In this document: piece after piece, positions 11,106 to 38,899 of the stretch
Position numbering within the stretch: position 1 is the first letter of the stretch
How the letters are laid out: each line of letters starts with the position of its first letter
DNA from: Chloroflexota bacterium
GTDB lineage: Bacteria; Chloroflexota; Anaerolineae; JAAEKA01
NCBI GenBank assembly: GCA_029558955.1
Contig: JAKQCW010000329.1
Coordinates: 1-51,267, forward strand
DNA: 51,267 nt
Direction of reading: 5' to 3'
Position numbers and translations under genes: made by a program
The notes under the pieces: model-generated
Seen by the model: only the letters and a program-made list of their open reading frames with translations
Database searches by the model: none
Told to the model about the DNA's origin: nothing

Positions 11106-11145
11106 GATAATTTCCTCGCGATGAAGGCTTGTTGTTTTGAAAGCT

Positions 11146-11294
11146 GACGCACCTAACGCTCTGGCCGGTCTCCTGACCGAGCCAGCCCGCCGTGTCACTG
11201 ACGCACCTAACGCTCTGGCCGGTCTCCCGACCGAGCCAGCCGTGTCGCGACGCACCTAACGCTCTGGCCGGTCTCCTGACCGAGCCAGCCCGCG
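11146..11294. repeat. Three-copy tandem hairpin repeat (54/49-bp units)
   Basis: Units begin at 11146, 11200 and 11249, each starting GACGCACCTAACGCTCTGG. Each contains a hairpin: CTGGCCGGTC, a TCCT/TCCC loop, then GACCGAGCCAG, with one bulged A. They fill most of the gap between the methyltransferase and valS. The core is the same as in the arrays at 20535 and 39696. Not CRISPR: the units abut without spacers. Confidence 0.9.
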
Positions 11295-20515: not shown

Positions 20516-20534
20516 CGGCGCGCTCAATTCTACC

Positions 20535-23477: not shown

Positions 23478-24644
23478 TCACCCTCTGCTCAACCGTTTCC
23501 ATCCATCGATCAGGCTTGCAGCAGCTCGTTCGACCTCAACAAGCTTAAGTCCCCGCCCCAGACTGGCCCTGACAGTTCCTTGCGCCGCCTTGCGATCCAG
23601 ACCAATTGCCTGTAAGACATGGGACGGCTCGACCGCCCCCGATGTACATGCCGAACCGGTGCCCAACATAACCTCAGGCACATTGAGAAGCAGCGCATCC
23701 GCGTCAACGTCAGGAAATACCATACTGCTGGTATTCGGCAATCGGCTATCGGGGTCGCCGTTGATCATCAAGCCAGGAACAGCAGCCAACAACTGAGCTT
23801 CTAGCAGATCGCGCAATTGGGCAAGTTCATGTGCTTCCCGGGGCAATTCCTCAGCGCACAGGCGGCACGCTTCTCCCAAACCCACAATCGCTGGAACATT
23901 TGTCGTGCCTGGCCGCAGATCTCGCTCTTGGCCACCGCCGTAACAAAGCGGCTCAATGGGCATGGACCGACCGCCGCCTCGAACGAACAGAGCGCCAACG
24001 CCTTTTGGGCCATAGAGTTTGTGGGCGCTGAGGGAGAGCAAATCCACCCCCCAATTCAGAACATCAACCGGGAGCTTGCCGACAGCCTGAGCGGCATCGC
24101 AGTGGACGATAACGCCGTGCTCGTGGGCGATGTCAGCGATGGCCTCTATCGGTTGTATGACGCCAATTTCATTGTTAGCTGCCTGGATGGAGATAAGCAG
24201 TGTGCGATCGGTGACCACCTCACGGACTGCATCCAACGCAATGTGCCCCAAACCGTCGACGGGAAGGACGGTTGTCTCGAAACCTTCGCCTTGGAGCTTC
24301 TTGCACGGTAGCAACACAGCCTTATGCTCGATGGCACAGGTGACAATGCGATTACGATGGTTTCTATCAGCCATACGAGCAAGACCTAGAATGGCCAGGT
24401 TGTTGCTCTCTGTTGCGCCGCCCGTGAACACAATCTCCCCGGGCTGCGCGTTGATCAGCGCCGCTGTCTGCGCGCGCGCCTCATCCACAGCTTGGGCGGC
24501 CAATCGACCCTGCAGATGAAGGCCGTTGGCCGGATTGCCATAGATATGAGCGAAGAAAGGCAGCATCCGTTCGATGACGCGCAGATCGCAGGGCGTCGTA
24601 GCGTTGTAGTCGAGGTAAATCGGTTCCATGGGTGTTTGTGGCAT
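23478..24644 (-). CDS. Cysteine desulfurase (NifS/DndA-like) of the defence operon
   Basis: The 388-aa PLP enzyme has cofactor Lys209 (SAHKLYGPKG), His107 stacking on PLP (CAIEH) and the catalytic Cys333 in GTGSACTSG. It would release sulfane sulfur from cysteine as a persulfide. It is the last gene of the nine-gene defence operon, four bases after brxL. Placed with a PAPS-reductase/DndC-like protein, it most simply supplies sulfur for DNA phosphorothioation, as DndA or SspA does. A housekeeping IscS role is less likely because no iscU, iscR or suf genes are nearby. The IscS-versus-DndA assignment rests on context, not on a diagnostic residue. Confidence 0.9.
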   Translation of the reverse strand: MPQTPMEPIYLDYNATTPCDLRVIERMLPFFAHIYGNPANGLHLQGRLAAQAVDEARAQTAALINAQPGEIVFTGGATESNNLAILGLARMADRNHRNRIVTCAIEHKAVLLPCKKLQGEGFETTVLPVDGLGHIALDAVREVVTDRTLLISIQAANNEIGVIQPIEAIADIAHEHGVIVHCDAAQAVGKLPVDVLNWGVDLLSLSAHKLYGPKGVGALFVRGGGRSMPIEPLCYGGGQERDLRPGTTNVPAIVGLGEACRLCAEELPREAHELAQLRDLLEAQLLAAVPGLMINGDPDSRLPNTSSMVFPDVDADALLLNVPEVMLGTGSACTSGAVEPSHVLQAIGLDRKAAQGTVRASLGRGLKLVEVERAAASLIDGWKRLSRG

Positions 24645-24648
24645 GAAT

Positions 24649-26085
24649 TCACTGGATGCCTGTCAACTCGTACTGAATCGTCTCGTCATACTGTCGATAT
24701 TCAGCATCCAACATATACAACTGGTCCCATACTAACTGACGCAGTTCCACTGCTGGACGGACGCAATAGATATCGTATTCTTCAGAGCTGACCTGACCGT
24801 GAGGAAACTGCAGCTTCATCAAGCCGCTGGCAATCATGCGGACGGCATCTTCATTGCGTTTGTAAAGCCGGCTGCCCTTCAGCTCAATAGCGCGAGCGGC
24901 GTACTGATTGGTGCTGGTATCTTCGCGTAAAGCCAACAGAGCATCGCCAAAGAAGTCTGACTTCAATCCAACCCCTTGAGCAAATGACCCTCCACTCAAC
25001 TTGCCAACTTTCCAGCCTGGTACGATGCCACGTAGTCGGTCAATGAAGGCAGTCTCCTGCAGGAAAGTAGGCAATTCCCTTACCAGGGGTGAGAGTATCG
25101 GACGTTGTTGACTGTCAAGCATAATGTTCGCCAGCATGACCAGACTGCAATCGCTGGCCGTTTCATACAAGCCGCCGCGCGTCAACCGTCCATTGGCCAA
25201 GAAACCCTTCAATCCACCCACGACTTCCTGGGGTTTTTCGAATTTGAGCGTTTGGACTTCATCCAAGACAACTACGGAAAAACGCGCCAGCAGCCCCCAT
25301 TGACCGCTGGCATTGTTGACAAACAAGACTGCCGGGGAAACGTTGCCACCGCTCAGCAGTCGCACTCGTGGATTGATGTTCTCATATAGATAGCTCTTGC
25401 CGGTCCCTTTTGGAGCCAGCTCGAGCAGGTGAAGGTTCTTTTCGACGAGAGGAAGAAGTCTGCAAAGGAGATAGGTCTTCTCCAGTTCGTCAAACGCCCA
25501 AGGATGGTAGCCCATCGATGTCAGCAACAATGCGCGCCATTCGTCTGTTGAAAAAGCTTTGCGCTTTTCTTGAAAGATCGCAAGGTTGACAGAAGCCTGC
25601 ATGGGCCTGAAGGATGTCAGAGCAATGCCCTCCTGTGTCTCCATCAGCTCAGCCACACCCCACATTCCTTGTTTCAGCAGGTCGGGGTATTGGTCAACAA
25701 TTCCATCAGCGATGTGAACATCGGCTAAACCAAGTAATTTGAGTTGCGCGGCGCGTTCTCTCACTCGACGGGTTAGTACGACCTCAACTTCGACCGGTGT
25801 AAGTACTTTGACGACATCGCCGTTGAGCAAGCGATTCTTGATGATCCTGGTTTCATCGGGACGCGGGATAAAACGGTCAGCCCAAGCCTGGATTTTGCCC
25901 AATTCCTCTGAACTTATGGCGCCCTCGCCGGGGGCAAGGGTATCGAGAACCCATTCCGCGACATAGGCCGGGACATTGCGCTTGTTCAATTGACTGGCTG
26001 GCAGACGACGCTTGTCCATGGCGAGACGGCCGAAGATCTGACCGACTTTTTCATTGAGTCCTTCGAGGGTTAGTAGGTCGTTCAT
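24649..26085 (-). CDS. brxL: BrxL-like AAA+ ATPase (short form)
   Basis: The 478-aa protein follows the BrxL pattern: an N-terminal DNA-associated region (LPASQLNKRNVPAYVAEWVL), a middle region ending HPWAFDELEKTYLLCRLLPLVEKN, then Walker A APKGTGKS (224-231), Walker B VVVLDE (271-276) and sensor-like FIDRLRGIVPGWK. BREX type 1 BrxL proteins, as I recall them, are near 680 aa with a Lon-protease-like C-terminal domain. Here the protein ends soon after the AAA+ module, so that domain is missing or unrecognisable. BrxL forms DNA-binding rings needed for BREX defence. The ATG overlaps the pglZ stop by four bases. Confidence 0.85.
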   Translation of the reverse strand: MNDLLTLEGLNEKVGQIFGRLAMDKRRLPASQLNKRNVPAYVAEWVLDTLAPGEGAISSEELGKIQAWADRFIPRPDETRIIKNRLLNGDVVKVLTPVEVEVVLTRRVRERAAQLKLLGLADVHIADGIVDQYPDLLKQGMWGVAELMETQEGIALTSFRPMQASVNLAIFQEKRKAFSTDEWRALLLTSMGYHPWAFDELEKTYLLCRLLPLVEKNLHLLELAPKGTGKSYLYENINPRVRLLSGGNVSPAVLFVNNASGQWGLLARFSVVVLDEVQTLKFEKPQEVVGGLKGFLANGRLTRGGLYETASDCSLVMLANIMLDSQQRPILSPLVRELPTFLQETAFIDRLRGIVPGWKVGKLSGGSFAQGVGLKSDFFGDALLALREDTSTNQYAARAIELKGSRLYKRNEDAVRMIASGLMKLQFPHGQVSSEEYDIYCVRPAVELRQLVWDQLYMLDAEYRQYDETIQYELTGIQ

Positions 26086-28256
26086 AACTCCAGGTCCTTA
26101 AGGAGAGTATCATCACGCTCATAGAGACTCATGACATCGATCTCCGCCTCTACTGCCACGTCGAATATCGCGCCATTGGGTTGGCGCAGCAGCAGGGTAG
26201 CTTTCAGCGGCAAATCAGCCTTTGTTGGCCATGGAGCCAGGCGCAGCTCAAATTCGCCCTTGCCTACTGGTGAGATATTCTGGTGAATGCGTGTTTGTGC
26301 ATCAGGTTGGTGTGACAGCGAGACTGCGATACATTCCAAGCTCACTTGGCTCGGATTTGTGATGTCGATCGTTAGTGTACCGGTTGCCTCCGCTTCGCCC
26401 GATCCCTTTACCGCTATCAAGAGGTTAGGACGCTGCGCGTCGCGGTGGAAAACAAACCAAGGAACGATGGCCTCCTCAGGAAAGAGGCCACCGTGCGGAA
26501 ATGGCTCATATCCGCTGCGATCGCCTTGAAAACTCTCTTCGCCCAGTGCGATCAGCATATCTTCCGTCATTCCAAAGCGCTGGCCATGAACAGCGATCTG
26601 GCCGGCAGCTTCGTCCAGTGAAAAACCACTTTCGTCAAAACTCCGATTTAGGTGTCCCCAGGCCAATCTTCCATGTGCTTGCATTCCACTTGGAACTGGC
26701 AGGCGTCGGGGCGATTGTGGATTACAGAGACGGCCATGGTCGCTGGTGACAATGATGTGCAGCTTTATGTTGGCTGGCAGTTTCTCGACCACCTCTTTGA
26801 GTGCCAGAAGGATCGATTCCAGTTCTGCCCGTACCTGGCGCTCTCGTTTGACATCTCCTTCAAAATGGTAGGCTTTGTCCGGCTGCCCGACGCGCCAGAA
26901 AATTAGGTCGCCCGGTTGTGCGTTTTTCAGTTCTTGACGTGGTGAGCTGGTATCCGGCAAGATCGTTCCTAAAGGTGTTGACTCGGAAGCCAGATACGGC
27001 GGAACCCCTTTGAGCAAGGCAGGTTTGGCAAATTCTGTAACAGTCGGCAACGGCGAGAAACAGTAGGACTTTTGTTCCAAAGTCAGTCGCCCTGTCTTTG
27101 CAGATAGCAGATCGGCCAAGTCCTGGGCATCCCAAGCAGGCAGGCCATCTGGAATGACGCATAACGTGACCGAATCCTTCGACGTTTGGAGCAATTGTGC
27201 AGATCGTTGAAAGGATATCCATCCCGGCTGCAATAGCCAGAGAGAATAGTGTTCCAGGTACCAGCGCGCAAAATCGTAGGCGAGGCCTTGAACGAGCTCG
27301 GCAGCGCGCTCGTCACCATCATTCGCTTGCCAGCGTCGAAAGGGCAAATACTCTGAGATGAACCACGTCAATACACCTGCTTCTGTTTGTGGCAGAGGAG
27401 ATGGCTCGGGCGGCGGCAAGATGTTTGTCAAAGCCGAGAACCATTCTGAGGAGAGATAGGGTTGCAGGTCCCACAGAGTTGTGGAGGTTAAGCGCCGGCT
27501 GTTGTTAAGGAAGAATTGCGCCGCGCACTCCGCCAACTCACGCCGGAGGCCAATGGGTAGCGGGAACGAGAGCATTTCCTCGAAGAAACGCCCGCCGGAG
27601 GCAATCAACCGTTTCATCCACTCGTCTTTGATCTCATGCAACAAGTCATTCGGCAATGCGAGGGGAAACTCGCCCAGTGCGGAAGTCGAGTGATGGCTGC
27701 CCAGACCCAACCAGTCAAGAAGTTGTCGTTTGGCTTGGCCCCGATCTCGAGCACTGTACGCCACGGCCTCTGGCAATTGTCCAGCTTCTCTTGTCAGCAA
27801 GGCGGCAAAAGTCCGCAGGATGACGGCTTCGCCTGCATCCGGCTCGTGAGAACAGAACCATAACAACCACCGAGCCGAGTGTTCACTGGATGGTGCGAGT
27901 TGCCAAAGCGTGACTTCTGATGGATAGCATCGACGAAGGACAAATTCGGCAGACACATCCTCCGGCAATACATTGCTCTGACCAACCCGCTGTGCAAGTA
28001 TCTTGGCCTGATTGTCGGTCAGTGCTGGGAATATGCGCATGAGAGCGGAGCTCAGCGACTCTTGGTGGAGATATGGACGTCCACGCAGTCGGTAGAACGC
28101 TTCTGCCCAAGCGCACAGTCTCTGGCCCTGAATCAGGATCGGTGTGTCATCTGTGGCGTGCCTTAGGAATTCGACCTCACTTGCAACGACACGGAATCCA
28201 GGTGGCGCAGGGAGGTCACCCTGACGGTCAAGCAATATCTCATTCATCCTGGTCAT
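26082..28256 (-). CDS. pglZ: PglZ-domain alkaline-phosphatase superfamily protein
   Basis: The 724-aa product has an N-terminal helical region and a PglZ domain from about residue 360. Visible motifs are VIPDGLPAWD (368-377, metal-binding Asp370), SPLPTVTEFAKPALLKG (401-417), TSDHGR (504-509) and AHGRLAWG (527-534). A beta-rich C-terminal domain follows (about 590-720). PglZ is a universal BREX component and a predicted metal-dependent phosphodiesterase or nuclease-like enzyme. The start is ambiguous: ATG at 28256 overlaps brxC by 17 bases, while ATG at 28247 overlaps by 8. It overlaps brxL by four bases. Its sequence is much shorter in the N-terminal half than some type 1 PglZ proteins. Confidence 0.9.
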   Translation of the reverse strand: MTRMNEILLDRQGDLPAPPGFRVVASEVEFLRHATDDTPILIQGQRLCAWAEAFYRLRGRPYLHQESLSSALMRIFPALTDNQAKILAQRVGQSNVLPEDVSAEFVLRRCYPSEVTLWQLAPSSEHSARWLLWFCSHEPDAGEAVILRTFAALLTREAGQLPEAVAYSARDRGQAKRQLLDWLGLGSHHSTSALGEFPLALPNDLLHEIKDEWMKRLIASGGRFFEEMLSFPLPIGLRRELAECAAQFFLNNSRRLTSTTLWDLQPYLSSEWFSALTNILPPPEPSPLPQTEAGVLTWFISEYLPFRRWQANDGDERAAELVQGLAYDFARWYLEHYSLWLLQPGWISFQRSAQLLQTSKDSVTLCVIPDGLPAWDAQDLADLLSAKTGRLTLEQKSYCFSPLPTVTEFAKPALLKGVPPYLASESTPLGTILPDTSSPRQELKNAQPGDLIFWRVGQPDKAYHFEGDVKRERQVRAELESILLALKEVVEKLPANIKLHIIVTSDHGRLCNPQSPRRLPVPSGMQAHGRLAWGHLNRSFDESGFSLDEAAGQIAVHGQRFGMTEDMLIALGEESFQGDRSGYEPFPHGGLFPEEAIVPWFVFHRDAQRPNLLIAVKGSGEAEATGTLTIDITNPSQVSLECIAVSLSHQPDAQTRIHQNISPVGKGEFELRLAPWPTKADLPLKATLLLRQPNGAIFDVAVEAEIDVMSLYERDDTLLKDLEL

Positions 28257-31200
28257 CCATTAACTGTTGCAACTGCACCAGACAACGGCGGCGAGTCTCT
28301 CTATCCCGGATTTCTTGGAACTTTGCTTCGATAAGTGCAACCAAGTCATTCTCCAATTGTCGCTGCAACGACTGCTTGATCTCAGCCAGCTGGCTACGGC
28401 CACTATCATCGAGAAATGCAGGAGGTGACTCAACCTGGCGCAGCAACGCGCCGGGGCTTTCGCCGCTGACTTGGCGCCGCGCCAAGGTATCCAACCAATT
28501 GCGCGCTTCTGCGGCCTTGCGTTTCCGCACATCCAGGGTCTCTGCCTTCTTGATTTCCAGAAGCTTTTGCTGGACAGCGCTCAGCCAAGCGCCGTATGTC
28601 GTCTCGATATCAAGTATTTTCGCCTCAAGCGCGTCAAGCTCGGCCGGAACGTTGCGTGGGAAACGGTCGAGCGCTTTAAGGTCTTCAAAGAAGTCAAGCA
28701 AATGCTGGATTCTTGCCTGAGCTTCCAGCAGCAACGTGTGAAGAGGGGTGTCTTGAACTTGCGACAAGTTACTCAGAAGCTTGTCGCGCTGTTGACGTAG
28801 TTCCTCGCGTGTAACAGCGCGCTCAACGGCCTGAGGCAGCACCGTTGCGAACCGTTCGTACTGTAGAATTCGGTCTTCAATTTCGGACGACTTCTGATCG
28901 CGCAATCGCGCTGTCTGTGGCGAAAGGTCAGTCAAACTCGCCAGTTCCGAGCGGTACTCATACAAATCGCGCAATGCCGCGGATGAACGCATGGTTTTCA
29001 ATCGGGCGGCGATTGTCTTTTCACCTTCCAGTTTCTGCAACTCTGCATGGCGTTGAGCCAATTGTTCCAGGGCCTCGTCAATTTGGTGCGCCCATTCAGG
29101 ATAACGCGCCAATTCTTTGCGAACATTTTGAAGCACTCGCTCATGTGCCTTATATTCGCTCAGATCAGCAAGGGCGCTATATCTGGCACAGTACCCGAGC
29201 AATGCACCTTGCACTGCCGCATTCCACTGCTTCTGCAACTCTGCCAACGATGGTCGCGTTGCATCAACGAACGAGAGCGTAGGGATGGAACCAAAGGAGT
29301 GCTGGAGTCTCAGAAGCTTGTTGATGTCACTTGTTTGCAGTTCATCAAGCAGAGTGCTTGTCTTGGCGTCGTACTCCTGAGCCTGGCGCAGAGCTCCTTC
29401 GAGGCGTGGCTTTTCTCGCAAGATGTTCTCGCGTGTGCTTTCTGGCAAACGCGGATTGGTGAGCATCGTTTCCAGATCAGCTAGAGCCTCATCAGCTTCG
29501 GCGATGGTAAATCGTTCGCTTTGGCGGACCTTGTCAACCACAGCACTGACCTGTGCAAACAATTCGTCTGACTTGGACCGACTGATGCGCAACGGAGTGA
29601 CCGTGCTGACTCGATTGAGAAAATCCTGGGGCCTCTTAGAGTCATCGAAGAGTTGTTTAAGTTGACTCGGCGCAATCACCTTGCCAGACAAGGCTAATCG
29701 AATCTCATGCTGGTTATAGCCAATCCACGAAGCCAACAACAAGACTAAGGTGTTATAGTCATGACCGTAGGGTGGATTCAGGAGAGTGAGCAAAACCGGG
29801 CCGACAGCGACATCATTGCATCCAGGTCGATATGTTGAGTCCAACAAATCCCATGCATGTTTCAAATCAATGGATTTGGGAGGCTGAATGGCGTAGGTGT
29901 CGGCGGATAGCAGCCCCCATTTCTGGGTCAGGTACAACGTGGAGAGCTGGTACTGAATGTCTTTACTGCCCAGGTTCCGAATACTGTTTCCGGCATTGTC
30001 GCTGACAAGCCAAAGGGTGACATTTTGGACGGCTTTGCGCAGGTTGTTAGGGCCTTTACCGCCAACCGAAAACTGACTGAAGAATTCCACCCGATACGCG
30101 TACGCCTGGCGGTAGCATTCTGACAGAACGGTTTTGAGTGAACGATCACGAAGAGTCTGCACGGACGCACGATACGCACCAGGCAGTACGAAATCAGCCA
30201 GCTCCCGGGGAATATCGGCAGGATATCTCCGATCTTCGATGAGTTTGTCCAGTGTCTGCTGAAAACTGTTCTGCGCCAGCCCTAACTCTTGCTGGTACAT
30301 GACCGAACCGACTTTCTCTCGGTCCGTCGAGGTGAGTTTCTCGATCGCAATCAATCGACGGGTGGCCTCGACTAGGTCCGGAACTGCGCGCCTGGGTAAC
30401 ATGATTATCACTGGTAGTGGATGGGAAGTTGTTGCAACAACCTCATCCAGAATGCCCTGTGCGGTCTGACGGACTCCTATCTTCTCATCTTCGGTCTGCG
30501 CCACCAACCAAACTACCAACCCGCGTAGGCCCTCTTCGATGCCATTCATGTGAGCTCGATAAGGCTGAAGCAGACTTCTGAGTTCTTCGGCAGTAAACGT
30601 GGAAGCGGCAAGAACAACCTGCTTCGGCGCCCAATCAGATGCATAGCCACATTCGGACGCGTGACCGAACTTGAGATTGACCGATGGTGTCGGCACCGCT
30701 GATGCGATCTTTTCCATCACGGCGCGGTCAACCGGTGTTGCCTCGACCGCTTTCTGAATTAGCTCCTCAACTTCCTGCGGGCGTGAGGCGGCGGGATGGA
30801 GGTAGGTTGCTTTACTGATCGGGTCAGCATAGGCGACTCTAAGTGCTACGAGGTCTTTGATCCCCTTTTTTACGGATGGGCCATCCAATCCACTGATGTG
30901 GGTAAGCAGTTCGATTTGTGCACCGGATCTGGCTTTCAGATTGACTGCTTGCTGGACAAACAGGGCCTGCAATAGTTTGCGTTCGTCATCGCTCAATGCT
31001 CTGGGCGCAGTCTCCAAAGCATTTCGATAGGCAGCATGCCACTTCTTCGAGAGCTGCTCGCCAAAGAAATCTACCAACGCGATGGGATAGACAAAATTTG
31101 GTATGCCAGCTTCTTGTGCAGGCTGGCCGCGCACATCTTCCCAAGCCCGGCGCACAAACTGCAGCGCGGTGCGCGGGTTCTCGCCGGCGCCGGTCTCGAA

Positions 31201-32454
31201 GTTATGAGCGGACAGGATGGCCGTGGTCAGCGGGTGGAGCGGAAAGCAGCCCTTGGCCACTCTTTCCTCGAACGCCTCAGGATTCCAGCGCAGCTCGGTG
31301 GAATATCGCTTGCCAAAGTGTTCATAGACAATGGTTCGTACCTGAGTTAGCCATCCCTTGATTTGGGGGCGCCAGACCTGCCAATTGTTCTCGTCTTGCC
31401 TGAGATAGGCTGCCAGCACACTTTCCATCAGTGAATACAGACTGGCGCGCTTATCCTTAGGCAAACGTTCCAACTCTTTCTTGACATCCTCGCGTCGTTG
31501 GCCTTGTGAGTAGGCCTCGGCTACCGTATCCACGTCCTGCTGTGAGAAAGCCAGAAAGACGCTCTTGCCCTGCCGCTTCGATATGCCGTTCAGCATCTCT
31601 TGCAACTTGCCGGCCGAGCGCGATGTGGCATATTTCTGGAGGAACAGGCTGAACTCATCGAATAAGACCAGCAGTCCACCCAGTTTATTCGGTTTGCAGA
31701 CATCATCCACTGCCCACAATACCAGATCCTCGAGGCTGATATCACGGCCAAAATCGGGATACATGCCGGTTAAGTGCTTTGCCAGCTCGCGCACTTGTTC
31801 GTAGGCGCCTTGACGACGCAGGCTGGCCGAAAGGCCTGGCAGGTCCGTGTGCTGGGTGGCCAAAAACGCTTCGGCTCTCTGCTTCTCCTCTTGGCGCAGG
31901 CCGTTGAGCCATTTCTCTGCGTTTTGATACCAGAATGGGATCTCAACGTTGCGCGTGGAATCGTGCTCCGTGAGAGCCTGCTCCAGAGCACGCACGAAGC
32001 CTTCCTGGAGATCGCTAATCGCATCACCCTGCAACCGTACGACCAGAAACTCGCCTTTGCTGCGCTTGAAGTCGCGGTAACCTGCCCACTGGGATGAATT
32101 GCTGATCGATTGTTGCAGACGCTCGAGAACGATGGTCACCTCGTCCGAGGTCGTTGGTCTGGCAAAGAAGTTCGCCAGCGCAAGCGCCAAATGGCTTTTC
32201 CCGCGTCCGTAATTGGCTGTGAGAACAATTCTATTGTCGTATCGTTCGACCGTGAGGGCGGTCTTCAGCATGTCAACGACATCTGTCGCGGCCAGGTTGC
32301 GTTGAGCGGCGCCTATGGTGGCAGGAGCCTGAGTAGTGAATATGTACTTCCTCAGCAATTCCTTGTTGAGCGCAGGATTTTCGTAGTCGCTCAATTGGAC
32401 GTCCGAGCGAAAATCCCCTTGCAGATCCATGCTGACTAACTCTTCGATGAGCAT
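28240..32454 (-). CDS. brxC: BrxC/PglY-like giant P-loop ATPase (DUF6079-type)
   Basis: The ATG at 32454 has GAGGG six bases upstream. The 1404-aa protein has Walker A ANYGRGKSH (80-88), Walker B LLVLFDE (261-267) and a long C-terminal half (about 1000-1404) rich in Leu, Glu, Arg and Gln that reads as coiled coil. Length, P-loop placement and position immediately before pglZ all fit BrxC/PglY, the large ATPase shared by all BREX types. Its molecular role in BREX is not settled; DNA remodelling or loading of the modification machinery is plausible. Local GC is near 50%, well below the flanking glycan genes. Confidence 0.88.
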   Translation of the reverse strand: MLIEELVSMDLQGDFRSDVQLSDYENPALNKELLRKYIFTTQAPATIGAAQRNLAATDVVDMLKTALTVERYDNRIVLTANYGRGKSHLALALANFFARPTTSDEVTIVLERLQQSISNSSQWAGYRDFKRSKGEFLVVRLQGDAISDLQEGFVRALEQALTEHDSTRNVEIPFWYQNAEKWLNGLRQEEKQRAEAFLATQHTDLPGLSASLRRQGAYEQVRELAKHLTGMYPDFGRDISLEDLVLWAVDDVCKPNKLGGLLVLFDEFSLFLQKYATSRSAGKLQEMLNGISKRQGKSVFLAFSQQDVDTVAEAYSQGQRREDVKKELERLPKDKRASLYSLMESVLAAYLRQDENNWQVWRPQIKGWLTQVRTIVYEHFGKRYSTELRWNPEAFEERVAKGCFPLHPLTTAILSAHNFETGAGENPRTALQFVRRAWEDVRGQPAQEAGIPNFVYPIALVDFFGEQLSKKWHAAYRNALETAPRALSDDERKLLQALFVQQAVNLKARSGAQIELLTHISGLDGPSVKKGIKDLVALRVAYADPISKATYLHPAASRPQEVEELIQKAVEATPVDRAVMEKIASAVPTPSVNLKFGHASECGYASDWAPKQVVLAASTFTAEELRSLLQPYRAHMNGIEEGLRGLVVWLVAQTEDEKIGVRQTAQGILDEVVATTSHPLPVIIMLPRRAVPDLVEATRRLIAIEKLTSTDREKVGSVMYQQELGLAQNSFQQTLDKLIEDRRYPADIPRELADFVLPGAYRASVQTLRDRSLKTVLSECYRQAYAYRVEFFSQFSVGGKGPNNLRKAVQNVTLWLVSDNAGNSIRNLGSKDIQYQLSTLYLTQKWGLLSADTYAIQPPKSIDLKHAWDLLDSTYRPGCNDVAVGPVLLTLLNPPYGHDYNTLVLLLASWIGYNQHEIRLALSGKVIAPSQLKQLFDDSKRPQDFLNRVSTVTPLRISRSKSDELFAQVSAVVDKVRQSERFTIAEADEALADLETMLTNPRLPESTRENILREKPRLEGALRQAQEYDAKTSTLLDELQTSDINKLLRLQHSFGSIPTLSFVDATRPSLAELQKQWNAAVQGALLGYCARYSALADLSEYKAHERVLQNVRKELARYPEWAHQIDEALEQLAQRHAELQKLEGEKTIAARLKTMRSSAALRDLYEYRSELASLTDLSPQTARLRDQKSSEIEDRILQYERFATVLPQAVERAVTREELRQQRDKLLSNLSQVQDTPLHTLLLEAQARIQHLLDFFEDLKALDRFPRNVPAELDALEAKILDIETTYGAWLSAVQQKLLEIKKAETLDVRKRKAAEARNWLDTLARRQVSGESPGALLRQVESPPAFLDDSGRSQLAEIKQSLQRQLENDLVALIEAKFQEIRDRETRRRCLVQLQQLMDDQDE

Positions 32455-32472
32455 ATTACCCTCTTGGCGTGA

Positions 32473-32937
32473 TTATTCTATGGCGCCATCGGCAAGCAGC
32501 GCCGCGTAGCGTCGTTGCAGAGCAGCGGTGAGTATTTCTGTGGCCTTCTCGGGCACGGTCAAAATCAACTTGGTACGCGGGTAGGGCAGGCCCTCCAGCG
32601 CGTCGCGCCAAAAGCGTTCGCGCTCGTCTGTCTCCAGACCCAGTAGCAGCACATCGAGCGTATGGACCAACAGGCAGTCTCGTCCGTGCAGTTGGCGAGT
32701 AAGTTCGTACAACAGTTGGGTGAGGTTTTGGTAGCCGTCTGCCCGCGTCAGACCGGAGAATCGCGCCCCTTCTGGCAGAGTTCGCAAGTAGGCATCTCGT
32801 GCGTCCAACGGCTCGACTCCCAGGCGAATGGCGATCTCGTCCTCTTGACCCAGGTAGTGGTGGGGTAGCAACCAAACGCCCACGCCTGTCCGAGCGCCGG
32901 GTTGCCGCAAGAGGTCACGCAGTTCCCGGATATCCAC
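32473..32937 (-). CDS. Small defence-operon protein, unknown; weakly BrxF-like without Walker A
   Basis: The start is a GTG at 32937 with GAGGG about nine bases upstream, three bases after the previous stop. The 154-aa soluble protein has an internal hydrophobic strand DCLLVHTLDVLLLGL followed by PRTKLILTVPE. This strand-plus-strand arrangement recalls the Walker B and sensor region of BrxF from BREX type 3, but no GxxxxGK(S/T) P-loop exists. It could be a degenerate BrxF-like ATPase that partners BrxC, or an unrelated adaptor. Its place directly upstream of brxC is the same as brxF in type 3 systems, as I recall it. I do not recognise it securely. Confidence 0.7.
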   Translation of the reverse strand: MDIRELRDLLRQPGARTGVGVWLLPHHYLGQEDEIAIRLGVEPLDARDAYLRTLPEGARFSGLTRADGYQNLTQLLYELTRQLHGRDCLLVHTLDVLLLGLETDERERFWRDALEGLPYPRTKLILTVPEKATEILTAALQRRYAALLADGAIE

Positions 32938-32940
32938 GTC

Positions 32941-33738
32941 TTAACCCTCGTACAGCTTTTGGAGCGCGTATTCGGCGCTAGGTTGTAACAGCACGACCTG
33001 GTATGGCCGCGAGATACGATACAGATCGACCATGCCCTCCTGCTTGAGCTGCAACAAGAGTTGTATCAGCCGATCTTCGCCCAGGAGAAAGGTGGCGGCG
33101 AAACCACCGTGAACCAGGTCGTCCAGATTGATGGTCAGACGACCGCTGAAGTTGGCAGACCAATAGTCGGCCAGGGCATAGCCCAAGGCCCAAGTGTCGG
33201 GCGCATCGACCGTGGGGACACGATACGTGGCGTCGCTGCCTTCTTCCAACAGACCCAACCGCGCCAGCCCATCGGGCTTGACATAGGTGCCTGTAAAGAC
33301 GGTCACTGTGCTGCGCAGCGAGCGAGGCGCTGGGATATTGCCGGTTTCTTGGGCCAGAAAGCCGGTCAGATCCGCCACCAGGTCATCGGCGTTGAACATG
33401 TTTCCCGGCACGAAACGCTGGCGCACCAGAAAGTGCCAGAAGGCGGTGCTGCCGTGTGGCGCCGAAAGATGGTAATGCAAGAGCCATTGAGTGGAGGGCC
33501 GCTCCAAATACGGATCCCGTGCTACAGCATACTCTCCCAGATGTGTCAGCTGATTGCCCTTTGTCAATAATCCTGCTCGCATGGCATAGCGGGGCATAGC
33601 TTCTTGATAAACCGTTCCAAGATCTGTGGATCTCGCCAGGTCATTTTGCTTGAATCCGGGATGTTCATGTGCAACTACAAGTACTTTCGAGACCGAGGAA
33701 CGCGAAAACGAAAACGTGCGATGGAATGTCAGACTCAT
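32941..33738 (-). CDS. DUF4007-like protein, second paralogue
   Basis: The 265-aa protein opens with FHRTFSFSRSSVSKVLVVAHEHPG and a helix-turn-helix-like segment (LARSTDLGTVYQEAMPRYAMRAGLL). It then carries DPYLERPSTQWLLHYHLSAP, which aligns with DPFLEDPGTLWLLHWQLATN of the DUF4007 protein at 37961-38899. That shared block is my main evidence for homology. The usual DUF4007 opening (FxGHExFxxRxxWLKK) is replaced, so this copy is divergent. It starts nine bases after the PAPS-reductase stop, with GAGG upstream. DUF4007 proteins are, from memory, frequent neighbours of Dnd-type sulfur genes; their function is unknown, possibly DNA binding. Confidence 0.7.
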   Translation of the reverse strand: MSLTFHRTFSFSRSSVSKVLVVAHEHPGFKQNDLARSTDLGTVYQEAMPRYAMRAGLLTKGNQLTHLGEYAVARDPYLERPSTQWLLHYHLSAPHGSTAFWHFLVRQRFVPGNMFNADDLVADLTGFLAQETGNIPAPRSLRSTVTVFTGTYVKPDGLARLGLLEEGSDATYRVPTVDAPDTWALGYALADYWSANFSGRLTINLDDLVHGGFAATFLLGEDRLIQLLLQLKQEGMVDLYRISRPYQVVLLQPSAEYALQKLYEG

Positions 33739-33747
33739 GGACTTGCC

Positions 33748-34569
33748 TCACAGATGGCAGATCAGACAACCTTCATCGGCGGATGCGTCGATGGAGAAAA
33801 TCTCGATCAGTGCTTGGTCGGTCTTGTGCTTTGGCGTGTTTCTGCGCCGGCTATGCTCGGCCTTGATTTCCGCTACACGGTTCGGATTGGACAACTCCGC
33901 AAGGCTTTCCCTTTGAGACCACGTGTATCGCTCGCCAGTCTCCTCATCGCTTTTTTCGTAACCTTCGGCGAGTGCGTAAAGATCTGGATGATTCTCTAGC
34001 AGACCTACCCATTCGATCTTCTGTTGAAAGAAGCAGAAATAGCAGCCCGATCGAGAACGCCAGTTGTAATATGCTGGCAGTCCTAGTCCGCTCTCGTCCA
34101 GAATCCGCACAATATCATCTTTCTTAAGCCCGGCATCAATGAATGGATACTTGGGATTGATATTTGGTTTGGTCGAAATATATCCTTTGCGATGTGGCTC
34201 ATCTGCCCGTATCCCGATGTAGCTGTAGCAAAGATCATCACCAACGTATTTCTCAAAGGGTTTGATCTTGAGGTAGTCAGTGCACCACCTGACTTGAGGG
34301 GAAGGAAGGAAGCCACGTCGAGCCATCAATAATTCATCAAAACCCTTTCCATCGTGTTTCAGAAAGGCAATTTCCTTTCCCAGGAACGCTTCCAGTTTCC
34401 TTAGATAATCGTATGTTTCTGGCAGTTCTTGCTCAGTATCACAAAAGACATACTCAAGTACTGGTATCCTGTCTCTCATGTAGATTGCCAGCGCCGTGGA
34501 GTCTTTGCCGCCTGACAGGGAGAGAATATGTCGGACGGGACCGTCTTTGGATGGATCGACAGTGGTCAT
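33748..34569 (-). CDS. brxP: PAPS-reductase/DndC-like ATP-pyrophosphatase (BrxP-like)
   Basis: The 273-aa protein has the PP-loop SGGKDS (19-24), the family block VRWCTDYLKIKPF (93-105) and five conserved-looking cysteines: Cys96, the pair Cys176/Cys179 (CYFC) and the C-terminal pair Cys268/Cys271 (CLIC). These could hold an iron-sulfur cluster as in DndC. PP-loop enzymes adenylate a substrate before sulfur transfer. With the operon's cysteine desulfurase this predicts sulfur insertion into DNA. A PAPS-reductase-family protein beside BrxC, PglZ and BrxL is the hallmark of BREX type 4. ATG at 34569 has GAGG seven bases upstream. One counted line (34141-34200) is 40% GC, the most AT-rich gene sampled here. 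Confidence 0.9.
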   Translation of the reverse strand: MTTVDPSKDGPVRHILSLSGGKDSTALAIYMRDRIPVLEYVFCDTEQELPETYDYLRKLEAFLGKEIAFLKHDGKGFDELLMARRGFLPSPQVRWCTDYLKIKPFEKYVGDDLCYSYIGIRADEPHRKGYISTKPNINPKYPFIDAGLKKDDIVRILDESGLGLPAYYNWRSRSGCYFCFFQQKIEWVGLLENHPDLYALAEGYEKSDEETGERYTWSQRESLAELSNPNRVAEIKAEHSRRRNTPKHKTDQALIEIFSIDASADEGCLICHL

Positions 34570-34605
34570 TATCGCCTCATCATGTCTACGCGGTAGAACA
34601 CAACT

Positions 34606-37600
34606 CTAGTATTCGCGCAGCAATGTGCTCAACGCCGCCCGAACAACTTCTGGGTCATCATCGCTGGTCTCAATAAATCCCTTCAAGTCCTCAACAATCC
34701 GCCTGCTGCGCATCTTCTGTTCCGCGCTTAATTCTGCCTCCGGGTCGTGCCCGTTGCGTTCGTGCTTGAACAGAGTGCCCAGCGTTTGCGCCTGTTCGGC
34801 AAACCAGTCGCTGTCACGGTCCGTCCAGTTGCGCACGGGGCGGCTGGCTGCATAGGCCAACGCACTTTCCAGGGCATGTTTGGCATCGGGAGCTTCGGCC
34901 GCTCGCTTCAGCAACGGCGCCAGCGTCGACTGTCGGACTCTTGGGGCAAGCTCATTGGCCAGCTCAAGAAACTGCTGCCAGCCGTCGTCATCGGTCGGCA
35001 GGCCGCAAGCCATCAAGAGTTGGTTGCGCGCTTCCAGCATGAGACGCGGGGTCGTTTCATTGAGCTCCAACAGCGTCGAGTTCAGGCCCTGGAAGAACCG
35101 CTCGACATCCCCAGTCTGAACCGCATCGGAGTCGGCAAAGGGCGCGACGCCAAATATCTGGGGTAACTCCGTCAGCAGCAGCACCTCCGGAGACTGCGCC
35201 CGTTCGATGGCATGGCGCGCCTCCAGAGTCGTGGTTGACAGCCGCTGCGTGCGCCAGGCGTGTTCGGGCAAGGTTTTCAGACGCCTGATCAGATCGCGCA
35301 CCACAGACAGCGCGGTGGGCTGCACGCCCAGTCCGCGGGCAAGTCGTTCGATCACCACCGCTCGTGCGCCAACGACGCGGCAGCCAGCCACAGCAAACAG
35401 TTCAGGGCGGCGTATCAGCACTTCCCAATCGGCAACCGTAGGTTCCGGCGACAACGTCCCCTGTTGGTAAAGCGTGGTCTCGTCACGATGCACTTGCATG
35501 AAAGCGCACAAGAGCACCGGCAGCACGCCGTCGGTCAGACCATAGGGTGGAGCCTTGAGCAACTCGAACAGCGCATCGACGGGGCGCGGTTCGGGATGGT
35601 CGCTGAACACGTAGTCGGCCAGTGCGTGCCAGGCAGGCAGAAGTTGGCCGGGATCGTCAGCGATGGGCGCGCTGAGACGCCATGCGCCGTCGGGCCCTGA
35701 CTGGTGCAATCCGGTAGCCTTCAGCAAGCTTTCGTACATGCTGCGCTCAGGCGGGTAGCCCTGGATGCCAAGTTGAGGGTGATCGGCGCGGGTCAGCATG
35801 GCCTCGATCAGATTGCGCCTGGCCGCCGCCCCCTGCGATGAGAGTGTGCGCCGATTGATCAATTCGTTGCGCAGCCGCGGGCTGGCGGGGTAGAGACCGT
35901 CGCACACTTGCGACAGCAGATGGGAAAGTCCACGCGCGGTCTGGACCGTCACATCGCGGCCCTGATGGTACCAGCGGCATCCGATATCTTCGCCTAGGCG
36001 CTGGATGGTTAGGGAATGCTCCAAGTCAGCGCGAACCAGAGCCTCGATCGCGCCAACGCGCGTGCGGAGCTCCCGTCGCGCGACTGGGTCATCGCGCAGT
36101 TCTGGCGTGTTATCCTTGATCCAGTGCAGGTTGCGTAACTCGCTGAGCAGGTCCGCTAACCGGGTCGTGCGCTCCGTGATTCCAACCACCAGATCGGCCT
36201 GATCCCGCACCGACGGCTGCGATGCCCAGGCGATGAACTGTCGGGTATCCGCGGGGCTGGCTGACAGGCAGAGCAAGACAACGCCGCTGGCGCCAGGGCC
36301 GCCAGAAAGCGAGGCTAGATCCAGGTTGACCATGTCGACGTAGCGGATATCGAAGAAACGCTGGACGCCTGTCTGGAAGCTGTGCCGTCGCGCTGTTGCC
36401 GGCTGGGGCGGCAGGTACTGCTGGATAGCTGTGGCAATGCTAAAGCTTCCGCCGACTTGCTTCGAGGCTTCCATTAGTCGCTCGTCGATGTCGACGTCGC
36501 TGCCCTCCCACACGGCAAAGGTGCGGTTGTAGCGCCGGTGGACGATTAGTGACTGCGACCGCAGCAGGCCGATGGCATGGCGAATCTCCTCGTCGCTACG
36601 CGCGGGCCTGCGCAGGGTGAACAGCACGTTGTCTTCGTTCGCCTGCACATGGCTGATTTCGGCCAGCCAATTCAACAGGCCGATGGTCTTCAGAGTATCG
36701 ACCGCCAGTGGAGGTAGGTCAATCGCACCGTTGAGGCGCTCCAGCGTCTCAGTCAGCGAACGCGCCCGCGCCGAACCAAAGATGCGTCCCTGGTAGTTGG
36801 CCGCCAGATAGTCAAACAAATCGGACAGACCGATGACCGATGGCAACCGATGTCGTTCGATATGCTCCTGAAAGCCGTACGGTTCCAGTGAGGTCAGGTA
36901 AGCGAAGATGGATCGCTCATTTTGCGCCAACTTGCGGAAGACATGAGGCAGCGCGACCAACGCAGCAGGGTGAAACGGATAGGCTTCCTGGCACAGCTCG
37001 ATGAATTGCTGCTCACTCAGGAGGCTTGGGCGCCAGCCGGCTGCCGCAGCATCTTGTGCGTACTGCTCAAGAACTGGCCGTATCTTCTGCAGCGCTGCCG
37101 GATTCACGGGCTCCAGGGCGTTGGCCAATAGCCGCATTTGCTGTCCCGGCGGCTCTTGAAAAGCAATATCCTCAAAACGTCCCTGAACCTTGGCCCATTC
37201 GCGTTGGCTGATGCTGTCGAGGTTGCCGGCGTAGCGATCAAATCCCTGGTGAAGAATACCAACCAGCACCAAAGGCGTCTCTCCACTGCGGTTGGCAAGC
37301 TCAGCCAGTTCTTGCAGCAGGAAGATGTCCGTCCTATCAGGGTGAGCCGAGCAGTACTCCAACAGCTTGCCCATTTCATCTACGAGGAGGAGGATACCCT
37401 GATAGCCTGTTTCTGGGAGTCGATTCAACAGGGATCGCAGCCAATCTGCGAGCACCCGACTCCCGACATCTGCCGGCCAGGCGGCCTGAGCAGCCAATAG
37501 ATCGCCAATTGCGGCGTCACGGCCCAATGGCTCCAAAGCTTTGCACAGACCCTGTGTCAGACACTGCTGCACTGGACCCCGATAACCCATCACGGGCACC

Positions 37601-37968
37601 GGAAGCAAGCCTCGGGTATCGGTGGAATGAGCTATCGAAACTGCTCGTTGGGCCAGAATTGGGTCGACTTCCTGTAATTGCTTGAGAGCAAAGGCATGGG
37701 CAGGCAATTCGGTCGCCATCAGATTCAGCAAGAACAACCCGAAGTAGGACTTTCCCGACCCATATGGCCCAGTAAGCGTCCATGCCCGAGTGATGGTCGT
37801 GTTGTCAACCCGGTTGAGCACGCGTTCCAGCGAACGGCGCGCTTGGACTGTCAAGCTGTAGCCCTCCGCAACTGAGGATTGCTGAAGGTCACGCTCGACG
37901 TTGACCGAGCGCACGCCGCCCTGGCGAACCCGGACGACGGAAGCGATGCCCAAGGATCCATCAGTCAT
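34606..37968 (-). CDS. Large P-loop ATPase of the defence operon (not BrxC)
   Basis: The ATG at 37968 (MTDGSLGIASVV) overlaps the DUF4007 stop by eight bases; the open frame to 38082 lies wholly inside that gene. The 1120-aa protein has Walker A GPYGSGKS (67-74) and Walker B GILLLVDE (191-198), followed by AAA-type helices (YPFHPAALVALPHVFRKLAQNERSIFAYL) and a long alpha-helical remainder. That YPFHP...LP segment also occurs in BrxC-like and DUF6079-like ATPases, so it is probably a distant relative. It lacks BrxC's C-terminal coiled coil. One sampled line (35281-35340) is 72% GC, very unlike the PAPS-reductase gene next to it. It may power DNA scanning or translocation for the sulfur-modification or restriction step. 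Confidence 0.8.
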   Translation of the reverse strand: MTDGSLGIASVVRVRQGGVRSVNVERDLQQSSVAEGYSLTVQARRSLERVLNRVDNTTITRAWTLTGPYGSGKSYFGLFLLNLMATELPAHAFALKQLQEVDPILAQRAVSIAHSTDTRGLLPVPVMGYRGPVQQCLTQGLCKALEPLGRDAAIGDLLAAQAAWPADVGSRVLADWLRSLLNRLPETGYQGILLLVDEMGKLLEYCSAHPDRTDIFLLQELAELANRSGETPLVLVGILHQGFDRYAGNLDSISQREWAKVQGRFEDIAFQEPPGQQMRLLANALEPVNPAALQKIRPVLEQYAQDAAAAGWRPSLLSEQQFIELCQEAYPFHPAALVALPHVFRKLAQNERSIFAYLTSLEPYGFQEHIERHRLPSVIGLSDLFDYLAANYQGRIFGSARARSLTETLERLNGAIDLPPLAVDTLKTIGLLNWLAEISHVQANEDNVLFTLRRPARSDEEIRHAIGLLRSQSLIVHRRYNRTFAVWEGSDVDIDERLMEASKQVGGSFSIATAIQQYLPPQPATARRHSFQTGVQRFFDIRYVDMVNLDLASLSGGPGASGVVLLCLSASPADTRQFIAWASQPSVRDQADLVVGITERTTRLADLLSELRNLHWIKDNTPELRDDPVARRELRTRVGAIEALVRADLEHSLTIQRLGEDIGCRWYHQGRDVTVQTARGLSHLLSQVCDGLYPASPRLRNELINRRTLSSQGAAARRNLIEAMLTRADHPQLGIQGYPPERSMYESLLKATGLHQSGPDGAWRLSAPIADDPGQLLPAWHALADYVFSDHPEPRPVDALFELLKAPPYGLTDGVLPVLLCAFMQVHRDETTLYQQGTLSPEPTVADWEVLIRRPELFAVAGCRVVGARAVVIERLARGLGVQPTALSVVRDLIRRLKTLPEHAWRTQRLSTTTLEARHAIERAQSPEVLLLTELPQIFGVAPFADSDAVQTGDVERFFQGLNSTLLELNETTPRLMLEARNQLLMACGLPTDDDGWQQFLELANELAPRVRQSTLAPLLKRAAEAPDAKHALESALAYAASRPVRNWTDRDSDWFAEQAQTLGTLFKHERNGHDPEAELSAEQKMRSRRIVEDLKGFIETSDDDPEVVRAALSTLLREY

Positions 37969-38899
37969 GGCAATAATATCGATCCAGCAGGCTGATGGCC
38001 GCGCGGCCCAACTTGTCTTCGGTGAACTCGTCCAGATAAATCTGACGCAGGCCAGCCGTCTCTTGAAATCGGAGTCGTCCATCGGTCAGGTCGGCCAAGA
38101 TTTCGAGATGTTCAACCACACTGTTCTCGTCAAGCTTGAAGATCTGGCCAGGACTGCCCTCGTGATAGATACATTCGTCAATGGCAACGGTCCTGCGCGT
38201 ATGGACGACTTGAGTCAGAAATGACAGCAGCGCGTACCCAAAGATTGGAGTTGCCAGCGTGGGCTTGGGCCCCATGCTGAAACGATAGATGTTATCGTCA
38301 GCGATGAAGCGCAGCAGGCCCAAATCACTGAGGGGGCAATCGAAGCCCTCGTCGCCAGCTAGGGACGAGACTCCTCGCATGGCCGGCACATAAGTGCGTA
38401 CGCAGCAGTCGATCTCGCGCTCAATCGTTCCCTGCGTTGTGACCACGCCCATGGCATCCAGCCGCTTGCCCACGAACATGGCCATTTGCTTCTTGTTGAA
38501 CTCCGGCTCGTAGAAAGCTGAGAAGACAAGATGCCACACCAAGCCACGCACCATGTTCGTGGCAAGTTGCCAGTGAAGCAACCAAAGGGTGCCGGGGTCT
38601 TCGAGAAATGGATCCCATCCTGTGTCGCCTAGAAGACTCGTGCCGAGAACAGTAGGCTGCAAGCTTCTTGCTCTTCGGTCAGTTGTCGCCTCACTCAAAA
38701 CATCTGTGGCCAAACACCAGTGGCGGATTGACCGCACCATGTTCTTACCCACGCCCAAGACGACCAATGCTTCATCGTCGCTGAAAATGGCCGGGTTGTG
38801 CGACGTTGCATCAATGCCCTTTTTCAGCCAGGAGTCACGAAAAACAAACTTTTCATGGCCTCCAAAGATTGGCTTGAGGCGTTTTTCTTGCACACTCAT
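37961..38899 (-). CDS. DUF4007 family protein, first gene of the defence operon
   Basis: The 312-aa protein starts with the diagnostic FGGHEKFVFRDSWLKKGID, then GVGKNMVRSIRHWCLATDVL (helix-turn-helix-like) and DPFLEDPGTLWLLHWQLATN. These are typical of DUF4007, a family I know from gene neighbourhoods of Dnd-type phosphorothioation genes; its biochemical role is not established. GGAA lies about nine bases before the ATG. A promoter is found 75 bases upstream, which makes this the leading gene of the island. It overlaps the large ATPase gene by eight bases, suggesting a stoichiometric partnership between the two. Confidence 0.85.
   Translation of the reverse strand: MSVQEKRLKPIFGGHEKFVFRDSWLKKGIDATSHNPAIFSDDEALVVLGVGKNMVRSIRHWCLATDVLSEATTDRRARSLQPTVLGTSLLGDTGWDPFLEDPGTLWLLHWQLATNMVRGLVWHLVFSAFYEPEFNKKQMAMFVGKRLDAMGVVTTQGTIEREIDCCVRTYVPAMRGVSSLAGDEGFDCPLSDLGLLRFIADDNIYRFSMGPKPTLATPIFGYALLSFLTQVVHTRRTVAIDECIYHEGSPGQIFKLDENSVVEHLEILADLTDGRLRFQETAGLRQIYLDEFTEDKLGRAAISLLDRYYCHD

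What the first reader, a model, noticed from the sequence alone, without database searches (positions are those of the whole stretch)
23478..38899. Nine-gene BREX type 4-like operon with a sulfur-modification signature
Seen: DUF4007, 1120-aa P-loop ATPase, PP-loop PAPS-reductase-like protein, second DUF4007-like protein, 154-aa protein, BrxC, PglZ, short BrxL and a cysteine desulfurase, all minus strand with overlaps or gaps of at most 36 bp. Known: BREX type 4 is defined by a PAPS-reductase-family protein with BrxC, PglZ and BrxL and no PglX methylase; Dnd/Ssp systems pair a cysteine desulfurase with a PP-loop enzyme to phosphorothioate DNA. Inferred: this operon marks self DNA with sulfur and uses BREX machinery to block phage. 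The extra ATPase, both DUF4007 proteins and the small protein are not part of the minimal type 4 set.
Basis: partly seen in the sequence, partly recalled or inferred. Interest (0 to 1): 0.92.

Follow-up and report, generated by a model that had tools for sequence, protein, structure and literature searches.

The report
Sulfur-marking operon with BREX defence arm
Nine bacterial genes, kept in the same order in at least 23 related loci from several phyla, appear to join a kit that writes sulfur marks onto the cell's own DNA to a separate BREX-type kit that attacks unmarked phage DNA, a layout that matches neither of the two published systems it resembles.

Summary
In detail: nine minus-strand genes at 23478-38899, overlapping or at most 36 bp apart. 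The reading 'BREX type 4-like' is only partly right. The operon is a full SspABCD phosphorothioation set (SspB, SspC, SspD, SspA) plus a separate BREX-like cassette: second DUF4007 protein, a P-loop-less small ATPase-fold protein (BrxB-like), a 1404-aa ATPase whose predicted fold best matches solved BrxC, PglZ and short BrxL. Canonical BREX-4 loci fetched for comparison have four genes, one ATPase and a fused BrxP; the window's PglZ scores 25 bits against a BREX-4 cut-off of 140. The 1120-aa 'extra' ATPase is SspC; the 1404-aa protein is the real extra. All nine genes keep this order in 23 distinct loci, including Thermomicrobium roseum DSM 5159. The two halves separate: in an acidobacterium the writer genes lie on the opposite strand; in two cyanobacteria the cassette sits beside dndC/dndD instead, and nine of nine cassette-bearing cyanobacteria without adjacent ssp genes carry dndC and no DndH. 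Most likely a phosphorothioation-guided BREX with its own restriction ATPase. Phosphorothioation and defence are untested. New variant of a known kind.

The parts
37961..38899 (-). Gene 1, SspB (DUF4007), 312 aa; putative DNA-binding subunit of the phosphorothioate writer
   Evidence: Pfam DUF4007 260 bits; PADLOC SspB 280 bits
34606..37968 (-). Gene 2, SspC, 1120-aa AAA+ ATPase (Walker A GPYGSGKS at residue 67); equivalent of the single BrxC of canonical BREX-4
   Evidence: PADLOC SspC 1013 bits, BrxC model PDLC02478 837 bits; profile match to BREX-4 BrxC E=1e-26; motif
33748..34569 (-). Gene 3, SspD, 273-aa PP-loop (SGGKDS) PAPS-reductase-like sulfurtransferase
   Evidence: PADLOC SspD 367 bits, BrxP 32 bits, DndC 21 bits; Pfam PAPS_reduct
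32941..33738 (-). Gene 4, second DUF4007 protein, 265 aa, BrxA-like DNA-binding candidate of the restriction cassette
   Evidence: Pfam DUF4007 71 bits; conserved directly before gene 5 in the cassette loci whose contig covers it
32473..32937 (-). Gene 5, 154 aa, ATPase-like fold without a P-loop, BrxB/BrxF-like (inactive STAND candidate)
   Evidence: No family hit; conserved in 33 loci; AF2 pLDDT 91; Foldseek hits weak (E>=0.08) but nearly all P-loop ATPases; no Walker A; matches a small P-loop ATPase at the same locus position in sister systems, hhalign E=0.0014 but probability only 18%
28240..32454 (-). Gene 6, 1404-aa BrxC-like AAA+ ATPase (YGRGKSH, LFDE), restriction-arm ATPase absent from canonical BREX-4
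   Evidence: AF2 of residues 1-760 pLDDT 87; top six Foldseek hits are BrxC chains of 9zll and 9zdx, best E=1e-8, probability 1.0; profile match to SspC 3e-21 and BREX-4 BrxC 2e-21
26082..28256 (-). Gene 7, PglZ, 724 aa, with invariant DG...D, PTxTxxxK, DHG and HGGxxPEE motifs of the metal-dependent nuclease fold
   Evidence: PADLOC PglZ PDLC02549 328 bits; all NCBIfam BREX PglZ types below cut-off; motif alignment; catalytic-domain match to BREX-4 PglZ 2e-12
24649..26085 (-). Gene 8, short BrxL, 478 aa AAA+ protein
   Evidence: TIGR02688 486 bits, cut-off 329; solved BrxL 8emc E=3e-58; clade separate from BREX-4 BrxL
23478..24644 (-). Gene 9, SspA/DndA-type cysteine desulfurase, 388 aa, PLP lysine in AHKLYGPKG, catalytic-Cys candidate in SACT
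   Evidence: PADLOC DndA 479 bits, SspA 474 bits; motifs

Best explanation
A two-part phosphorothioate-based BREX defence operon. Writer arm: SspA (gene 9) takes sulfur from cysteine and passes it to SspD (gene 3); SspB (gene 1) binds DNA and the AAA+ ATPase SspC (gene 2) drives insertion of a non-bridging sulfur at a short motif in host DNA (inferred from the characterised SspABCD homologues). Restriction arm: the second DUF4007 protein (gene 4, BrxA-like) binds DNA; the P-loop-less 154-aa protein (gene 5, BrxB-like), the BrxC-fold ATPase (gene 6) and PglZ (gene 7) form a core complex like the BrxC-BrxB-PglZ complex solved for type I BREX; BrxL (gene 8) is the DNA-bound AAA+ ring. On DNA without the sulfur mark the complex is released to nick or block phage DNA through PglZ and BrxL; marked self DNA is spared. 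Shown here: gene content, families, fold, motifs, conservation, and separability of the two arms. Inferred: sulfur chemistry, complex formation, nuclease activity, and the sign of the signal (absence of the mark triggers attack).
For: Strong Ssp family matches for genes 1, 2, 3 and 9. BrxC fold for gene 6; PglZ and BrxL matches with intact motifs. Conserved nine-gene order in 23 distinct loci from Chloroflexota, Thermomicrobiota, Bacteroidota, Thermodesulfobacteriota and Cyanobacteriota. The arms are separable: writer genes on the opposite strand in an acidobacterium (L065); cassette beside dndD/dndC and a DGQHR (DndB-type) gene in Fischerella and Nostoc (L139, L140). Nine of nine cassette-bearing cyanobacterial genomes without adjacent ssp genes hold dndC, against 57 of 194 background genomes; none has a true SspD or a DndH. 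BrxL of the Dnd-associated cassettes falls in two places inside the cyanobacterial Ssp-associated clade. Type I BrxC-BrxB-PglZ is a core complex (PMC13326643); [quoted passage not shown] SspABCD writes single-strand phosphorothioates (PMC8092258).
Against: No measured phosphorothioate or phage data for any member. The BrxB identity of gene 5 rests on a P-loop-less ATPase-like fold, locus position and a weak profile match (E=0.0014, probability 18%). Which ATPase serves which arm is inferred. The nine cyanobacteria are related, so nine of nine is not nine independent events, and in only two of them was dnd shown next to the cassette. Dnd marks both strands and Ssp one, so one reader module accepting both is not obvious.
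Confidence: 0.7

Rival explanations
1. It is simply a long-form BREX type 4 operon: one integrated machine in which both ATPases, both DUF4007 proteins, PglZ and BrxL act together in marking and defence, as type I BREX needs several subunits for methylation.
For: NAR 2026 (PMC12839542) describes type 4 as SspB-, SspC- and SspD-like proteins with PglZ, BrxL and often a cysteine desulfurase; the gene order and tight overlaps suggest co-expression; SspC and gene 6 are homologous.
Against: Canonical BREX-4 loci have four genes, one ATPase and fused BrxP; PglZ is far below the BREX-4 cut-off; BrxL forms a separate clade; writer and cassette separate or are swapped.
Confidence: 0.17
2. The cassette senses phosphorothioates as an activating signal (as SspE does) instead of sparing marked DNA; genes 4-8 are silent without the mark and harmless in unmarked cells.
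For: SspE works this way with the same writer (PMC8092258); the cassette is usually linked to a writer.
Against: SspFGH with the same writer and, by analogy, BREX act on unmarked DNA; no SspE-type protein is in the operon. Sequence alone cannot settle the sign.
Confidence: 0.2
3. The operon's marking has become regulatory and the BREX-like genes act in genome maintenance and not in phage defence.
For: In the window the operon lies among polysaccharide-synthesis genes, not a defence island; orphan phosphorothioation systems with regulatory roles are reported (PMC8092258).
Against: Patchy spread across phyla, location on a megaplasmid beside type III-B CRISPR in T. roseum, intact PglZ and BrxL motifs.
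Confidence: 0.08

Closest known systems
BREX type 4 (brxPCZL)
   Same: PAPS-reductase-family protein, SspC/BrxC ATPase, DUF4007 module, PglZ and BrxL, no PglX; reported to make phosphorothioates (cited in PMC11931770 and PMC12839542)
   Different: Type 4 has one ATPase and fused BrxP; the window has two ATPases, two DUF4007 proteins, separate SspD, an added 154-aa protein and a PglZ outside the type 4 model
SspABCD-SspFGH and SspABCD-SspE
   Same: Same four-gene writer SspA/B/C/D
   Different: Restriction partner is a BREX-like cassette; no SspE, SspF, SspG or SspH model matches any window protein (the SspF, SspG and SspH models do ring on a control locus)
BREX type 1 (BrxA/B/C/X/Z/L)
   Same: Cassette parallels BrxA, BrxB, BrxC, PglZ and BrxL in order and predicted fold
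   Different: PglX methyltransferase is replaced by a whole Ssp writer; DUF4007 in place of BrxA; PglZ and BrxC very divergent
Dnd phosphorothioation (DndABCDE-FGH)
   Same: Sulfur mark; in cyanobacteria the same cassette accompanies dnd genes
   Different: The window operon has no DndC, DndD, DndE or DndFGH

Membership tests
BREX type 4 | BrxP: fused DUF4007-PAPS-reductase protein of about 780 aa | tested here: not met
   Gene 3 is a 273-aa stand-alone SspD (367 bits) with only 32 bits to BrxP; six canonical loci fetched as controls carry a 771-790-aa protein in that place
BREX type 4 | One BrxC-type ATPase | tested here: not met
   Two ATPases, genes 2 and 6; canonical loci have one
BREX type 4 | PglZ of the BREX-4 subfamily (NF033445, cut-off 140 bits) | tested here: not met
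   25 bits; 0 of 201 genomes of the host phylum exceed the cut-off, 7 of 249 Bacillota do
BREX type 4 | BrxL present and PglX absent | tested here: met
   TIGR02688 486 bits, cut-off 329; no methylase gene in the operon or among the flanking genes scanned; but BrxL lies outside the BREX-4 clade
BREX type 4 | DNA phosphorothioation by the system | not testable with these tools
   Needs mass spectrometry
BREX (general) | PglZ plus a BrxC-type ATPase | tested here: met
   PglZ PDLC02549 328 bits, motifs; gene 6 fold matches solved BrxC. Sequence-level BrxC hit for gene 6 is weak (E=2e-5)
SspABCD phosphorothioation writer | SspB, SspC, SspD and a cysteine desulfurase | tested here: met
   280, 1013, 367 and 474 bits
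SspABCD phosphorothioation writer | Single-strand phosphorothioate at a short motif such as CCA | not testable with these tools
   Needs mass spectrometry or PT sequencing
SspABCD-SspE / SspABCD-SspFGH | SspE or SspFGH restriction partner in the operon | tested here: not met
   No SspE/F/G/H model hit in the nine proteins; positive control for F, G and H on L048
Dnd system | DndC/DndD writer | tested here: not met
   Gene 3 has 21 bits to DndC against 367 to SspD; met only in related loci L139 and L140

The most novel reading that the evidence does not exclude
A distinct class of phosphorothioation-guided BREX in which restriction is a self-contained plug-in cassette (DUF4007-BrxB-like-BrxC-PglZ-BrxL) that reads sulfur marks made by either of two different writers, Ssp or Dnd, so that marking and attack, entangled in other BREX types, use separate ATPases.
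Probability: 0.45. Interest if true: 0.75.

Novelty: new variant of a known kind. Interest (0 to 1): 0.62.

Why it matters
In type I BREX the same subunits take part in marking and in attack, which has hidden how restriction works (PMC13326643). Here each job seems to have its own ATPase and DNA-binding protein, so the two can be deleted apart. About 84% of surveyed sspBCD sets had no known restriction partner (PMC8092258); this cassette is a candidate partner for some of them, and for dnd sets without DndFGH. Named cultured strains carry it or its cassette (Thermomicrobium roseum DSM 5159, Anaerolinea thermolimosa IMO-1, Levilinea saccharolytica KIBI-1, Fischerella muscicola PCC 7414), so the claim can be tested directly.

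Tried and rejected
Single-protein scans of genome contigs and viral contigs with gene 6 gave no relative; the alignment-based genome scan worked, the viral one did not, so phage carriage has no support. BREX-4 membership was tested against six fetched canonical loci and rejected. SspE and SspFGH partnership rejected. A sequence search of solved structures with gene 6 gave nothing significant; fold search did. Foldseek for the 154-aa protein gave only weak ATPase-fold hits, so BrxB is a reading and not a finding. An unbiased cyanobacterial association test failed for lack of power: only two of 194 drawn genomes hold a true cassette ATPase. The BREX-4 phosphorothioation paper (PMC12914056) is not held in the library. 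HerA-anchored BRC and DUF499 BR systems (PMC12839542) were considered: no HerA/FtsK or DUF499 match in the nine genes.
Full report
OBSERVATION. Nine minus-strand ORFs fill 23478-38899. Order in the direction of transcription: DUF4007 (312 aa), 1120-aa ATPase, 273-aa PP-loop protein, second DUF4007 (265 aa), 154 aa, 1404-aa ATPase, PglZ (724 aa), BrxL (478 aa), cysteine desulfurase (388 aa). Gaps are at most 36 bp. The eight flanking ORFs scanned are a TPR membrane protein, an oxidoreductase, polysaccharide-synthesis and glycosyltransferase genes and a DegT-type aminotransferase; the operon does not sit in an obvious defence island.

WHAT EACH GENE IS. PADLOC scores: SspB 280 bits, SspC 1013, SspD 367 (BrxP 32), second DUF4007 as SspB 60, none for the 154-aa protein, BrxC E=2e-5 for the 1404-aa protein, PglZ 328, BrxL 687, DndA/SspA 479/474. 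Pfam and NCBIfam agree where they have a model. The 154-aa protein has no match in Pfam, NCBIfam, PADLOC or PHROGs. Its frame is conserved in 33 loci, it has no Walker A, its AlphaFold2 model is confident (pLDDT 91), and its structural neighbours, though weak (E 0.08 and up), are nearly all P-loop ATPases. In a sister group (Ktedonobacter and others) the small gene at the same position is an ATPase with an intact P-loop in most members; the two profiles align over most of their length with E=0.0014 but low probability. I read it as the inactive STAND protein that BREX calls BrxB or BrxF. For the 1404-aa protein, residues 1-760 were modelled (pLDDT 87). The six best PDB matches are chains of 9zll and 9zdx, the Acinetobacter BrxC-BrxB-PglZ complex and BrxC dimer (best E=1e-8). 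Its profile also matches SspC (3e-21) and BREX-4 BrxC (2e-21). PglZ keeps invariant DG...D, PTxTxxxK, DHG and HGGxxPEE motifs. By alignment with a type I PglZ the motif Thr and His appear to fall where T538 and H741 were shown necessary for full nuclease activity (PMC12205998); I did not align to that exact protein.

CONSERVATION. A scan of genome contigs with a six-sequence alignment gave 59 loci. Local HMMs show all nine families in the same order in 25 loci; L014/L054 and L015/L075 are the same genomes fetched twice, so 23 are distinct, the window included. They lie in Chloroflexota, Thermomicrobiota, Bacteroidota (Hymenobacter), Thermodesulfobacteriota and Cyanobacteriota. Armatimonadota loci carry genes 1-8 without the desulfurase; many other loci are cut by contig ends. 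Thermomicrobium roseum DSM 5159 carries all nine on its megaplasmid, next to a type III-B CRISPR locus; Pseudanabaena galeata has the same layout with insertions. In 400 genomes of the host phylum the PglZ model PDLC02549 scores at least 300 bits in six genomes, all of which also carry gene 6 or a piece of it. No viral contig gave a relative.

NOT BREX TYPE 4 AS DEFINED. The published gene set for type 4 is brxPCZL (PMC11931770). Seven of 249 Bacillota genomes pass the BREX-4 PglZ cut-off; I fetched six of these loci. Each has BrxP (771-790 aa), one BrxC (1169-1395 aa), PglZ and BrxL. The type 4 BrxC scores 53-97 bits with the SspC HMM and 0-25 with the gene 6 HMM. The window's PglZ reaches 25 bits against a cut-off of 140 and aligns with type 4 PglZ mainly over the catalytic domain. 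In a BrxL tree the nine-gene loci plus the Dnd-associated and split loci are one side of a 99/96 branch, and the BREX-4 rows are one side of a separate 100/100 branch (midpoint root, long branches flagged by the tool).

TWO ARMS. In an acidobacterium (L065) SspB, SspC and SspD lie on the opposite strand, downstream of genes 4-8. In Fischerella and Nostoc sp. S13 the cassette is followed by convergent dndD and dndC (TIGR03185 737 and 749 bits; TIGR03183 725 and 732 bits), a DGQHR (DndB-type) gene and a phosphorothioation-associated protein; the Nostoc copy lacks BrxL. Nine cyanobacterial genomes have the cassette without adjacent ssp genes. All nine hold dndC; none has a true SspD (the best hits, 34-41 bits, are the dndC genes) and none a DndH (hits of at most 69 bits, mostly in short HerA-like frames). 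In the phylum draw 57 of 194 genomes have dndC above 130 bits. With independence the chance of nine of nine would be about 2e-5, but these species are related, so this is support and not proof. Only two of the nine show dnd beside the cassette. In the tree the Dnd-associated BrxL rows fall in two places among Ssp-associated ones, which suggests more than one exchange of writer.

MECHANISM. Best reading: SspA, SspB, SspC and SspD write a sulfur mark on host DNA, as in characterised Ssp systems (PMC8092258); genes 4-8 form a BREX-type restriction machine that attacks or blocks DNA lacking it. The BrxC-BrxB-PglZ core complex of type I (PMC13326643) fits the adjacent genes 5, 6 and 7. Steps shown: gene identities, folds, motifs, order, separability. 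Steps inferred: sulfur chemistry, complex formation, nuclease action and the sign of the signal. The SspE-like alternative, in which the mark activates the effector, stays open.

NOVELTY. The parts are known. PADLOC (2023) already holds full-length PglZ, BrxL and SspC/BrxC models that fit genes 7, 8 and 2 well, so such loci have probably been collected as BREX; the 2026 survey (PMC12839542) counts 457 type 4 taxa and may include some of them unremarked. I found no description, in the papers searched, of the two-ATPase, two-DUF4007 layout or of its pairing with dnd genes; the supplements and the BREX-4 phosphorothioation paper could not be read. I rate it a new variant of a known kind.

Noticed in passing
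window 11144-11293, 20534-20836, 39695-39815: Tandem repeats of 45-63 bp sharing a GGCCGGTCTC...GACCGAGCC core lie in three separate arrays, on either side of the operon; one runs inside a predicted glycosyltransferase ORF.
   Followed up: no
L102 1-19225: A Bacillota locus combines SspG and a DndH/SspH-like protein with a DUF4007 protein, a gene-6-like ATPase, BrxP, SspB, SspC and a desulfurase: another mix of Ssp, Dnd and BREX parts.
   Followed up: partly
L018, L019, L021, L022, L098, L099: Sister loci carry DUF4007 - small P-loop ATPase - large BrxC-like protein - PglZ (about 780 aa) - BrxL, some with SspD, SspB or a desulfurase nearby: a second phosphorothioation-linked BREX-like lineage.
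   Followed up: partly
L089 13924-14583; L093 at about 13885: In Trichormus and Anabaena the PglZ gene is only about 220 codons long and lacks the catalytic domain, while BrxL after it is intact.
   Followed up: no
L101, L103, L104, L105, L107: Oscillospiraceae and other Bacillota loci have a 570-600-aa PAPS-reductase protein, SspB, SspC and a desulfurase with no PglZ or BrxL detected; in the two examined (L101, L103) a 727-730-aa protein and an ATPase-like protein follow.
   Followed up: no
L132 17497-19701, L134 17759-19900, L137 17509-19683: Three canonical BREX-4 loci have a 713-734-aa gene upstream of BrxP; the one in L137 matches a phage-integrase N-terminal domain.
   Followed up: no
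L037 3010-5124: Pseudanabaena galeata plasmid: a phosphorothioation-associated putative methyltransferase (TIGR04096, 839 bits) is encoded beside the Ssp-BREX operon.
   Followed up: no
L140 5785-9706: In Nostoc sp. S13 the cassette lacks BrxL, PglZ is short (636 aa) and the convergent dndD ends 23 bp beyond it.
   Followed up: no
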